NCBI GenBank assembly: GCA_016180195.1
Contig: JACPBS010000004.1
Location: forward strand, 106,555 to 170,554
Length of the DNA: 64,000 nt
Source of the DNA: Candidatus Woesearchaeota archaeon
GTDB lineage: Archaea > Nanobdellota > Nanobdellia > Woesearchaeales > UBA10216
Reading direction: 5' to 3'
The notes beneath the pieces were generated by a model, which was given only the letters and a program-made list of their open reading frames with translations, was not told where the DNA came from and did no database searches. Every line of letters starts with the position of its first letter. Position 1 is the stretch's first letter. The position numbers and the translations under genes are program-made. Of the stretch, positions 2,846-48,272 are shown piece after piece.

Positions 2846-3024
2846 ATGGGAGGCAAATCTGTCGGAATAGTTGGATTCGGCCAACTTGGGGGATTTTTAG
2901 CAAAGCATCTCAGAAATGATTTTGACATTTTTGTTTCCGGGACATTCAGGTTTTGAATCCTTATGCTGAAAAAGGAACATTCGTGTCAAAGATTGAAGAT
3001 ATTAGGAAAAAGCTTAAGGATTAA
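2846..3024 (+). pseudogene. Remnant of a Rossmann-fold dehydrogenase, probably prephenate dehydrogenase (tyrA-like)
   Basis: An ATG opens 'GIVGFGQLGGFLAKHL', a classic NAD(P)-binding GxGxxG start as in TyrA, with 'NDFDIFVSG' after it. The frame stops at once, but a +1 shift continues as 'IQVLNPYAEKG' and 'KIEDIRKKLKD' up to TAA at 3022-3024. This looks like the natural C-terminus of the same protein. The middle 150-200 residues are missing, so the gene has lost its core by deletion and cannot be functional. Its end overlaps the convergent rnhB stop by a few bases. The family assignment rests on the N-terminal motif and the general look of the tail; another short Rossmann dehydrogenase is possible. 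Confidence 0.5.
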
Positions 3025-3725
3025 TTTTCATCCCATCCAGAAAGATCTTTCTGGAATTCTCCACCTTTCACCCTCTTATATGGCATCCAGCTTTTCCTGA
3101 AGATCTCATGATGCGTCTCGTGGTTTTTTTTAAGAAATGCCTGTGTAAGCGGGTCTGTAAGGTAGCCTGAGCCAAAATTGATCCCTATTTTTTTTTTGAT
3201 TTTCCCTATTTCATCCTCCCTTGTGACCTTTGCCAGTATTGATGCAGCCCCGCATTCAATGTGATTCAAGTCAGCCTTGTGCTCCACAGAAACATCGATC
3301 TCCTTGTTATCAAGAAGTTTCATCAGGTATCTCTTGTAGTTGATTATGTTGTTGCTTGGGCTGTCTATTATTGCCTTCTGGGGCTTCAACGAGTTTATTA
3401 TCTCTGCAGATTTGTGTGCCTCAAGCCAGTTGAGGTTAAGGTCATCAGACTGAAGGGCAGCATCTATTTCAGAAGGCTCAATGACAACTATTTTCCATTT
3501 TATGGCGATGGTTTTTATCTTGTCAAAAAGAGTTCTCATCTTCACGATTGACAATAGCTTAGAGTCCTTCACGCCAATTGATTTGAGGCTTTCGCTTCCT
3601 TCCTCATCTAACAGGACTCCTGCCATGACCATCGGACCTATGATGGGGCCTTTGGGTTTACTTAAGCTCGAAAATCATGCTTAAAGTAATCTACCTGCCT
3701 CATCAATGCCGCAAACCACAGTCAT
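3021..3725 (-). CDS. rnhB: Ribonuclease HII, interrupted by a 39-nt putative intron
   Basis: RNase HII cleaves RNA in RNA:DNA hybrids and removes single ribonucleotides. The long open frame (from ATG 3632) lacks the first catalytic residues. Upstream, from ATG 3725-3723, the sequence encodes 'MTVVCGIDEAGR'. A 39-nt stretch with TAA and TGA follows, then 'GPIIGPMVMAGVLLDEE'. Joined, the parts give the family signature DEAGRGPxIGPM exactly. The rest is intact: 'AIIDSPSNN' and 'HKADLNHIECGAASILAKV' carry the other acidic residues. The spliced protein would be about 221 aa, normal for archaea. The ATG overlaps the stop of the upstream HTH gene (ATGA), which supports this start. Without removal of the insertion the enzyme would lack its catalytic Asp-Glu pair. 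Confidence 0.85.
3652..3690 (-). other. Putative bulge-helix-bulge intron in rnhB mRNA (39 nt)
   Basis: The stretch has both TAA and TGA in the rnhB frame, yet its removal restores the frame and the conserved motif. Its ends form an inverted repeat (TTACTTTAAGC against GCTTAAGTAA). On the RNA, exon GGU pairs with intron ACC, and a 3-nt bulge AGA separates that helix from UUAC/GUAA. The other strand bulges at CAAAG, and the exons pair outside (GAUGAGGC with GCCCCAUC). Cutting at AG^A and CAA^AG rejoins AGA (Arg) in frame. This is the layout used by the archaeal tRNA splicing endonuclease, with an irregular 3' bulge. The boundary can slide by one base (3651-3689) because an A is shared. Confidence 0.6.
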
Positions 3726-4003
3726 ATTGCTATCACATTTTTGTTTAAATTTAATTTCCACATTTTTTTATCGGTCCGTATGACTAAACCTAATTTTTCG
3801 AGTTCTTTTAATCTTCGAAATGCAGATTTCCAAGAAACGCCCAATTTTTCGGCCAATTCCTTAGTATGTTGACAATCTTCCACCAGAATATTTAAATATT
3901 TATACTTTAAATGCGATATAATAATTGCTTTTTTAGTTTTAATAACCCAATATTGTGAACTTTTAACCCTAAAATTCTCAATAATCATTTCTTTTTTGAG
4001 CAT
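3722..4003 (-). CDS. Small winged-helix DNA-binding protein
   Basis: 93 aa. A helix-turn-helix is visible in 'TKELAEKLGVSWKSAFRRLKEL' (about residues 47-68, of which the last helix is the likely recognition helix), followed by a basic wing and 'GLVIRTDKKMWKLN'. This is typical of ArsR/MarR-like one-domain archaeal regulators. The gene is clearly more AT-rich than the neighbouring core genes. Its stop overlaps the proposed rnhB start (ATGA, 3722-3725), so the two are probably co-translated. Its target and ligand cannot be read from the sequence. Confidence 0.7.
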   Translation of the reverse strand: MLKKEMIIENFRVKSSQYWVIKTKKAIIISHLKYKYLNILVEDCQHTKELAEKLGVSWKSAFRRLKELEKLGLVIRTDKKMWKLNLNKNVIAI

Positions 4004-4180: not shown

Positions 4181-4213
4181 GGGCTTTGAACCCAACGCGA
4201 AATTTATTTGTAA
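4181..4213. repeat. Dispersed 33-bp repeat, copy 1
   Basis: This is one of three near-identical 33-bp units in the window (others at 9705-9737 and 46175-46207). All read GGGCTTTGAACCCAA, three variable bases, then GAAATTTATTTGTAA. Each copy ends 1-18 bp from the stop codon of a minus-strand gene, here the Lrp-type regulator. On the minus strand, GGGTTCAAAGCCC could form a 3-bp stem with a 7-base TTCAAAG loop, resembling a tRNA T-arm. Its function is unknown. Confidence 0.7.
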
Positions 4214-7105: not shown

Positions 7106-7159
7106 ATTTCTCGAAAACCTTCTGAATTATTTAAAGCAGAAAAAATAGCGGGGGCTGGA

Positions 7160-7186
7160 GTTTCACACAGTTCAGATGAACTGAGG
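7160..7186 (-). other. T-loop intron of initiator tRNA-Met (27 nt)
   Basis: Inserted between tRNA positions 59 and 60. The central helix is exon UUCA with intron UGAA. Bulge 1 is AAC (AA^C) and bulge 2 is ACU (AC^U). The intron itself contains the hairpin CAGTTC-ATCT-GAACTG. Removal gives the standard loop TTCAAAT. Confidence 0.87.
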
Positions 7187-7232
7187 TTTGAACCAACGAC
7201 CTATGGGTTATGAGCCCATCGGGCACTCCTGG

Positions 7233-7262
7233 TTAGGCGGATACAGCGCAAGTCTATAACCT
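7233..7262 (-). other. D-loop intron of initiator tRNA-Met (30 nt)
   Basis: The intron lies in the D-loop, between exon GGGCAG and CCAGGAGTGCCC. The bulge-helix-bulge fits well. The central helix is exon GGGC with intron GCCU (one G-U pair). Bulge 1 is AGA cut as AG^A, and bulge 2 is AAC cut as AA^C. An inner helix starts with GG/CC. The 5' bulge is the same as that proposed in rnhB. Confidence 0.85.
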
Positions 7263-7300
7263 CTGCCCTACCCCGCTATTAGTCTGGGTGTAGTGCAATA

Positions 7301-9704: not shown

Positions 9705-9737
9705 GGGCTTTGAACCCAACACGAAATTTATTTGTAA
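9705..9737. repeat. Dispersed 33-bp repeat, copy 2
   Basis: Same unit as 4181-4213, differing only in the three-base centre (CAC). It ends 18 bp from the stop codon of the minus-strand J-domain gene. The stretch 9331-9755 thus holds a TATA region, tRNA-Ser and this repeat pair; no protein gene is seen in it. Confidence 0.7.
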
Positions 9738-46174: not shown

Positions 46175-46207
46175 GGGCTTTGAACCCAAGGCGAAATTTA
46201 TTTGTAA
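46175..46207. repeat. Dispersed 33-bp repeat, copy 3
   Basis: Same unit as copies 1 and 2, variable centre GGC. It ends one base before the stop codon of hjc. Confidence 0.7.
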
Positions 46208-47738: not shown

Positions 47739-48272
47739 ATGACAAAAGAGATCGTTAATGCGTATCTTTCAGAGGAAAGGGTGGTAACAGAGAACTCTGA
47801 CGCTGCCCGGGAGTTGTATAACCAGGCAAGGTATGGGAAGATAACGAAGGATAATTCTGTCCAGCTTTCGCTTATAGAGGCATTTTACCTTAATGAGAAG
47901 CAGAGGATTGTTGTTCTTGACAAGAAGGGGAAGGCTGTTCCGGCCGAGACTTTCATGAAGAAGGCTTCGCGGAAGGAGCCTGGCTTCTGGGTCAGGTACT
48001 CAGTGTATAAGGACATTCGTGACAGGGGTTACATAATAAAGACTGCCCTTAAGTTCGGTGCTGATTTCAGGATTTATGACCGCGGAGTGAAGCCCGGCGA
48101 GGATCATGCCAGGTGGATAGTATACCCTGTTTACGAGGCTGAGAAGCTGACTTGGTATGAGTTCGCTGCGAAAAACAGGGTTGCTCACTCTACTAAAAAA
48201 AGGCTTCTGATAGGTGTTGTTGATGACGAAGGCGATGTTTCCTATTGGGAATGCAGGTGGCTGAGGCCTTGA
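47739..48272 (+). CDS. endA: tRNA splicing endonuclease EndA
   Basis: 177 aa, the size of homotetrameric archaeal EndA. The catalytic triad is visible: Tyr113 in 'GADFRIYDRG', His123 in 'GEDHARWIVYPV', and Lys153 in 'VAHSTKKRLLIGVVDDEG'. 'DVSYWECRWLRP' is the C-terminal strand. The N-terminal domain reads as the usual fold ('SEERVVTENSDAARELYNQA', 'RYGKITKDN'). It cuts bulge-helix-bulge motifs in pre-tRNA and, in some archaea, pre-mRNA. A TATA box (TTTTAAAT, 47708-47716) lies about 25 bp before the ATG. Its presumed substrates in this window are the tRNAs at 7146 and 9447, and rnhB. Confidence 0.93.
   Translation: MTKEIVNAYLSEERVVTENSDAARELYNQARYGKITKDNSVQLSLIEAFYLNEKQRIVVLDKKGKAVPAETFMKKASRKEPGFWVRYSVYKDIRDRGYIIKTALKFGADFRIYDRGVKPGEDHARWIVYPVYEAEKLTWYEFAAKNRVAHSTKKRLLIGVVDDEGDVSYWECRWLRP

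What the first reader, a model, noticed from the sequence alone, without database searches (positions are those of the whole stretch)
3651..3690. A 39-nt intron-like insertion splits the catalytic motif of RNase HII
Seen: the minus strand encodes MTVVCGIDEAGR, then 39 nt with in-frame TAA and TGA, then GPIIGPMVMAGVL. Joining gives the near-invariant DEAGRGPxIGP motif with no lost or extra residue. The insertion has inverted-repeat ends and a bulge-helix-bulge-like fold with an AG^A site identical to that in the initiator tRNA D-loop intron. The upstream gene's stop overlaps this ATG. Known: archaeal EndA splices BHB introns in tRNA and a few mRNAs (Cbf5). Inference: rnhB mRNA is spliced by EndA in a DPANN-type genome.
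Basis: partly seen in the sequence, partly recalled or inferred. Interest (0 to 1): 0.93.

Follow-up and report, generated by a model that had tools for sequence, protein, structure and literature searches.

The report
Archaeal splice intron inside RNase HII
In this archaeon a 39-base insertion with stop codons cuts the RNase HII gene at its catalytic motif, and 40 different insertions sit at the same point in relatives, nearly all predicted to form the fold that tRNA-splicing enzymes cut, so it is very likely an intron that is spliced out of the messenger RNA, a rarity in archaeal protein genes.

Summary
The window's rnhB is split by a 39-nt insertion (3652-3690, minus strand) inside the Arg codon of DEAGR|GP. 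I found insertions at the same site in 39 genomes from 20 family codes of the same class, plus three further named contigs: 41 different insertions of 19-45 nt, in all three length classes modulo 3. None of the 41 can be read through unspliced. Joined in bulge-helix-bulge (BHB) register, all 41 remake an Arg codon in a GxDEAGRGP-type motif (39 with AG^N ... NN^A cuts). There 351 of 369 BHB base-pair cells are kept, with much compensatory change; sliding the partner drops this to at most 183. The window encodes EndA and the genome RtcB; no second RNase HII and no RNase HI were found in this 97%-complete genome. The best explanation is an EndA/RtcB-spliced BHB pre-mRNA intron like that of crenarchaeal cbf5, in a new gene and another part of the archaea. 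Presence is scattered on the gene tree and goes with an upstream winged-helix gene (21 of 39 rows against 3 of 108). Splicing itself was not observed: no RNA data were available.

The parts
3691..3725 (-). rnhB exon 1 (35 nt): MTVVCGIDEAG plus the first two bases (AG) of the Arg codon
3652..3690 (-). 39-nt predicted BHB intron, with in-frame TAA and TGA
3021..3651 (-). rnhB exon 2 (third base of the Arg codon, then GPIIGP... to the stop)
   Evidence: the joined protein scores PF01351 135.4 bits over profile 1-197, against 97.8 bits over 15-197 for the ORF that starts after the intron
3693..3696 (-). 5' strand (AGGU) of the 4-bp central helix H, in exon 1
3690..3692 (-). 5' bulge AG^A, predicted cut between 3691 and 3690
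3684..3689 (-). 5' arm of the inner helix (UUACUU)
3658..3663 (-). 3' arm of the inner helix (AAGUAA)
3654..3657 (-). 3' strand (ACCC) of the central helix H, in the intron; 3 of 4 pairs form
3651..3653 (-). 3' bulge AA^A, predicted cut between 3652 and 3651
3722..4003 (-). upstream winged-helix (MarR/HTH_24-like) ORF whose stop overlaps the rnhB start as ATGA
47739..48272 (+). endA, tRNA-intron lyase (177 aa), the predicted splicing endonuclease
7146..7277 (-). initiator tRNA with insertions in the D-loop and the T-arm, likely another EndA substrate
   Evidence: read by eye, BHB not modelled

Best explanation
The 39-nt insertion is very likely an archaeal bulge-helix-bulge intron in the rnhB pre-mRNA, predicted to be cut by EndA at AG^A and AA^A and joined, probably by RtcB, to remake the Arg codon of the catalytic DEAGRGP motif. 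Shown: the insertion, its stop codons, the cut pair that restores the frame in BHB register, 41 different insertions at the same site with covarying helices, EndA in the window and RtcB in the genome. Inferred: that the RNA is made, folds this way, is cut by EndA and ligated by RtcB, and that full RNase HII is made only from the spliced message. Intron-free near relatives and the scatter of the intron on the gene tree imply repeated gain and/or loss.
For: Same-site insertions: 6 of 19 genomes of the window's family; 10 of 80 named genome contigs; 26 of 352 genomes of the order and 27 of 371 sampled in the phylum, 14 of them shared, so 39 genomes in 20 family codes; with three further contigs, 41 distinct introns. 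BHB pairs: 116 of 117 cells in the 13-row alignment, covariation score 0.933 against 0.234 shuffled (0 of 500) and at most 0.181 when slid (the weakest of its five measures, pairs with a change on both sides, was reached by 29 of 500 shuffles); 351 of 369 cells in all 41, against 223.9 +/- 7.1 in shuffles (0 of 2000) and at most 183 when slid. RNAalifold, given no structure, finds the same central and inner helices plus an outer exonic helix. All 41 joined codons are Arg (39 AGA, 1 AGG, 1 CGA); 0 of 41 are open and in frame unspliced; lengths mod 3 (0/1/2) are 13/17/11. EndA in 36 of 39 intron genomes; EndA and RtcB in this genome. No other PF01351 hit and no PF00075 hit in this genome. The joined protein matches RNase HII over its length.
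Against: No transcript, cDNA or cleavage data. The window's own H helix has an A.C mismatch (36 of 41 have 4/4; the five defects are all at the outermost pair). Fold energies are unremarkable (window z -1.58; five others z -1.38 to +0.02). EndA was not found in G126 (98% complete), G164 and G246. Seven of the 39 intron genomes hold another intact PF01351 gene. The pair statistics do not correct for relatedness, and no other-phylum or bacterial control was run.
Confidence: 0.94

Rival explanations
1. Translational bypassing: the ribosome hops over the insertion as in T4 gene 60 (recalled), with no RNA cut.
For: A hairpin sits in the gap, and the insertion length is free modulo 3.
Against: In 12 of 41 loci the triplet after the 5' exon's last whole codon is not Arg (11 Ser, 1 Asn), and the triplet before the 3' exon's first whole codon is a stop in 16 of 41; joining bases from both sides gives Arg in 41 of 41. 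The conserved pairing is in BHB register and includes exon bases.
Confidence: 0.02
2. Decayed gene or sequencing/assembly error: rnhB is broken by a small insertion.
For: In-frame stops; many of the relatives' records are titled MAGs.
Against: 41 different insertions at one codon, exon 2 open and conserved (70% mean column identity over 18 family sequences), covarying helices, and no second RNase HII found here.
Confidence: 0.02
3. Alternative start: a functional RNase HII begins at ATG 3632 and the upstream piece is irrelevant.
For: An open 203-aa ORF starts there and still matches PF01351.
Against: It lacks profile positions 1-14, where GxDEAGRG with the first catalytic acidic residues lies (catalytic role recalled). 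The split motif can be rejoined in frame in 41 of 41 loci.
Confidence: 0.02

Closest known systems
cbf5 pre-mRNA intron of Desulfurococcales and Sulfolobales (Watanabe 2002, not seen; Yokobori 2009, PMC2738675: abstract and passages seen)
   Same: Short intron (16-44 bp there, 19-45 nt here) without an ORF, predicted cuts between second and third bulge residues, lying in a codon of a catalytic motif, lost in some lineages.
   Different: Different gene (RNase HII) and different archaea. There the BHB is mostly unconventional and tied by the authors to hetero-oligomeric EndA; here the central helix is complete in 36 of 41 and this genome shows one EndA gene. Spliced cDNA is reported for cbf5, not here. 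Here presence differs in 10 independent pairs on supported branches, against at least two losses reported for cbf5.
EndA-processed BHB intron in the 5' UTR of Haloferax volcanii HVO_1309 (PMC7714728: passages seen)
   Same: Archaeal mRNA substrate of EndA.
   Different: In a 5' UTR, not splitting a coding motif.
Archaeal tRNA and rRNA BHB introns
   Same: Same motif and presumed enzymes; the window's initiator tRNA has insertions in the D-loop and T-arm.
   Different: Host RNA is not coding.
Group I introns of archaea (PMC6125680: passages seen)
   Same: Introns reported in Woesearchaeota rRNA genes.
   Different: Those listed are hundreds of nt long; no Rfam match in the window.

Membership tests
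Archaeal BHB pre-mRNA intron | BHB (about 4-bp helix, 3-nt bulges) spanning both borders | tested here: met
   36 of 41 with all 4 central pairs; window 3 of 4; covariation
Archaeal BHB pre-mRNA intron | Joining at the bulge cuts restores a conserved ORF | tested here: met
   41 of 41 give an Arg codon; joined motifs; Pfam 97.8 to 135.4 bits for the window
Archaeal BHB pre-mRNA intron | Host encodes EndA | tested here: met
   This genome yes; 36 of 39 intron genomes
Archaeal BHB pre-mRNA intron | EndA cuts the RNA at the predicted sites | not testable with these tools
   needs an in vitro assay
Archaeal BHB pre-mRNA intron | Spliced mRNA exists | not testable with these tools
   no transcript data held
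Group I / group II intron | Catalytic RNA core | tested here: not met
   19-45 nt; no Rfam hit in the window
Translational bypass | Product encoded by contiguous triplets on each side of the gap | tested here: not met
   Ser/Asn triplets on the 5' side in 12 of 41, a stop on the 3' side in 16 of 41; Arg in 41 of 41 only by joining both sides
Intein | In-frame insertion translated with the host | tested here: not met
   0 of 41 open and in frame

The most novel reading that the evidence does not exclude
The intron is a recurrently acquired, regulatory splice gate. The codons of the universal DEAGRGPxI motif form an exonic hairpin that keeps capturing BHB introns. In these archaea splicing then decides whether a transcript of the winged-helix/rnhB unit yields only the DNA-binding protein or also RNase HII (in five loci the two share one open frame up to the intron), which couples ribonucleotide removal from DNA to the tRNA-splicing machinery.
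Probability: 0.2. Interest if true: 0.93.

Novelty: new member of a known kind. Interest (0 to 1): 0.87.

Why it matters
In the papers I saw, cbf5 is the one archaeal coding sequence with a confirmed BHB intron. A second gene, with 41 natural variants across a class of small-genome archaea, would make the gain, loss and function of archaeal mRNA introns testable by comparison. Its mostly canonical BHBs, beside a single EndA gene in this genome, would loosen the link drawn between mRNA introns and hetero-oligomeric, relaxed EndA. It also warns that ORF finding alone misses the catalytic start of an enzyme here, so other 'truncated' genes of such genomes deserve a second look.

Tried and rejected
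A de novo scan of the window for BHB sites that restore reading frames gave 3532 BHB-like sites and 2044 frame-restoring readings; the 28 top rows shown did not include rnhB and gave no convincing new intron, so geometry alone is not diagnostic. Thirty other window ORFs (of 62 non-overlapping ORFs listed) were scanned with Pfam at E 1e-7: 25 had a match, 5 had none, and I saw no second gene split across an insertion; RNase P p30 matched only profile 127-212 and was not pursued. The TruB_N (cbf5-type) gene of this genome is one open frame of 333 aa. Codons at the site in 108 intron-free genes (AGA 54, AGG 18, CGT 15, CGC 10, CGA 4, and Lys AAA 4, AAG 3) do not decide gain against loss. The 54-nt model hit in G205 lies in a stretch that reads like another gene, not rnhB, and G343, G351 and G068 (44-48 nt hits) are uninterrupted. 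L137 was flagged by my motif filter but is intact. Rows dropped: L097 from A3/R1 because its register is shifted by one base (it is counted, shifted); L167 and L190 are absent from the tree (motif filter; short exon 2). A first reading of L155-L197 ignored strand and was redone. For L191, L192, L194 and L197 the best-scoring cut was not in the common register; forces the common register on all but L097, and L197 then gives CGA. The winged-helix counts differ by method: 18 of 54 intron loci against 2 of 115 by phmmer; 7 of 54 against 1 of 115, whose distance filter was faulty; 21 of 39 against 3 of 108 non-redundant rows with a profile (its 14 seeds were themselves taken from these loci, 12 with and 2 without intron).

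Literature: eight searches of an open-licence PMC library showed no listed report of an rnhB intron; subscription papers and preprints were not searched. Passages were seen of PMC12397907 and PMC6379350 besides the papers named elsewhere.

Full report
WHAT IS THERE. On the minus strand an ATG at 3725 opens MTVVCGIDEAG, then AG of an Arg codon, then 39 nt with in-frame TAA and TGA, then A GGC CCC ATC ATA GGT. The ORF after the insertion (3021-3632) matches PF01351 RNase_HII only from profile position 15. Joining the flanks at the cuts below gives a 221-aa protein that matches positions 1-197 with 135.4 bits against 97.8, scores TIGR00729 with 163.2 bits against 124.9 (cut-off 123.3, so both pass) and aligns with solved RNase HII chains, best 1uax_A. 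The genome (1.23 Mb, 97.5% complete) gave one PF01351 hit and no PF00075 RNase H hit.

THE SAME SITE IN RELATIVES. In the PF01351 search of 79 genomes, several same-family genomes matched only from position 8 or 9. Reading them showed insertions at the identical codon in G001, G004, G009, G015 and G017, while the other family members have an uninterrupted motif: with the window's own genome, 6 of 19 of the family. A scan of named genome contigs returned 80 loci, 10 with an insertion at this site, titled Woesearchaeota, Nanoarchaeota, Jingweiarchaeum and unnamed archaea; one record is titled a chromosome (CP066683.1). A covariance model built from 13 of these introns gave matches of 55-81 nt and 44.7-75.6 bits in 26 of 352 genomes of the order; apart from four of 44-54 nt (see Tried and rejected), the other matches are 36 nt, the length of the uninterrupted motif, with at most 35 bits. 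In an even sample of the phylum, 27 of 371 genomes matched at E 1e-8 or better, 13 of them new. That makes 39 genomes in 20 family codes, and with L097, L135 and L138 41 distinct introns (G015 and G017 share one). These are lower bounds: the search used stricter filters.

ANATOMY. For each insertion I enumerated cut pairs that restore the frame and then scored all 41 in one register, L097 shifted by one base. The 5' bulge is AG^A in 28, AG^T in 10, and AG^C, CG^T and AA^A in one each. The 3' bulge ends in ^A in 40 and ^G in one (L097). The joined codon is AGA 39, AGG 1, CGA 1: Arg in 41 of 41. Lengths are 19-45 nt, with remainders 0/1/2 modulo 3 in 13/17/11, so length is not held to a reading frame. 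None of the 41 is both in frame and stop-free. Pairing: 351 of 369 cells, at most 183 when the 3' partner is slid by 1 to 3 bases; shuffled partners give 223.9 +/- 7.1 (0 of 2000 as high). The central helix is complete in 36 of 41; the five defects, the window's A.C among them, are all at the outermost pair. The five inner pairs counted are complete in 29 of 41. In the 13-row alignment 38 cells change on both sides. RNAalifold without a given structure returns the same central and inner helices and an outer helix from exon codons. Single-sequence folding energies are not significant, and BHB geometry alone is frequent by chance, so the case rests on comparison, not on one fold.

EXONS TAKE PART. 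The outer helix pairs codons of DE with those of the following P and I/V/L. All four pairs form in 23 of 41 intron genes against 31 of 108 intron-free genes (Fisher p 0.0024), and the Glu third base pairs with Pro in 27 of 41 against 30 of 108 (p 2.9e-5); three of the six single pairs show no difference (p 0.19 to 1.0). This is not corrected for relatedness. It suggests, as inference, that synonymous sites are held for the fold and that this motif is a natural landing place.

MACHINERY. EndA lies in the window at 47739-48272: 177 aa with both the N-terminal and the catalytic domain, above the TIGR00324 cut-off, best solved chain 3iey_A. It is the only PF01974 hit here; a diverged second subunit is not excluded. 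RtcB is on another contig. EndA is found in 36 of 39 intron genomes; G126 (98% complete), G164 and G246 gave none. Seven of the 39 have a further intact PF01351 gene: G017 an intron-free rnhB, and G154, G200, G203, G204, G209 and G246 a weaker full-profile match with open frames of 270-297 aa that may be RNase HIII; G356 has two partial matches on two contigs. G017's intron copy equals that of G015 and may be a binning error.

NEIGHBOUR. A winged-helix ORF ends on the rnhB start as ATGA in the window and in many intron loci. By a profile made from these loci it is present in 21 of 39 intron rows and 3 of 108 intron-free rows (Fisher p 5.7e-12, not corrected for relatedness). In 10 independent pairs on supported branches it goes the same way as the intron in 6.2, the other way in 0.0 and does not differ in 3.8 on average (median p 0.031, range 0.004-0.375). 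In L097, L135, L177, L179 and L196 the winged-helix frame runs open into exon 1, although internal starts exist.

EVOLUTION. On a quick tree of 147 exon-2 proteins the intron state changes at least 32 times, against a mean of 34.4 (29-38) for 200 shuffled labellings: it is scattered almost as if at random. Many branches are weak, but near cases are telling. The window's sister L056 (support 82) lacks intron and winged-helix gene; L050 has an intron and its sister L063 (support 88) has none although their upstream regions look alike. Counts cannot tell gain from loss.

MECHANISM. Most likely EndA cuts the pre-mRNA at both bulges and RtcB joins the exons, giving the only message for full RNase HII. 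Exon 1 is only 35 nt, so splicing must compete with the first translating ribosomes (inference). Whether the intron regulates rnhB is open.

LITERATURE. The cbf5 intron has the same size range, the same cut position in the bulge and also lies in a catalytic codon, but its BHB is mostly unconventional and was tied to hetero-oligomeric EndA; the authors wrote in 2009 that splicing of other pre-mRNAs was unconfirmed, and cite predictions in other genes (PMC2738675, passages). PMC7714728 (passages) adds a 5'-UTR intron in Haloferax and in 2020 counts cbf5 as the only other example. My eight searches listed no rnhB intron.

Noticed in passing
window 7146-7277 (-): Initiator tRNA gene with two insertions (D-loop and T-arm), missed by ARAGORN; only 15 RF00005 hits (14 above the cut-off) in the 97%-complete genome, which suggests heavily interrupted tRNA genes.
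   Followed up: partly
window 4181-4195, 9705-9719, 46175-46189 (-): Three exact copies of TTGGGTTCAAAGCCC inside a longer similar stretch (ACAAATAAATTTCG...), just behind minus-strand ORFs: a small dispersed repeat of unknown role.
   Followed up: partly
L097, L135, L177, L179, L196 upstream of rnhB: A winged-helix frame that is open straight into rnhB exon 1, so a fused HTH-RNase HII is possible after splicing.
   Followed up: partly
G017:C1 (L052) and G017:C38 (L051): One genome bin holds an intron-free and an intron-bearing rnhB; the latter equals the copy of G015, so mis-binning is likely.
   Followed up: no
L050 against L063: Near sisters with similar upstream regions differ by presence of the intron (45 nt) and by AG|A against CGC at the Arg codon: a good pair for studying gain or loss.
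   Followed up: partly
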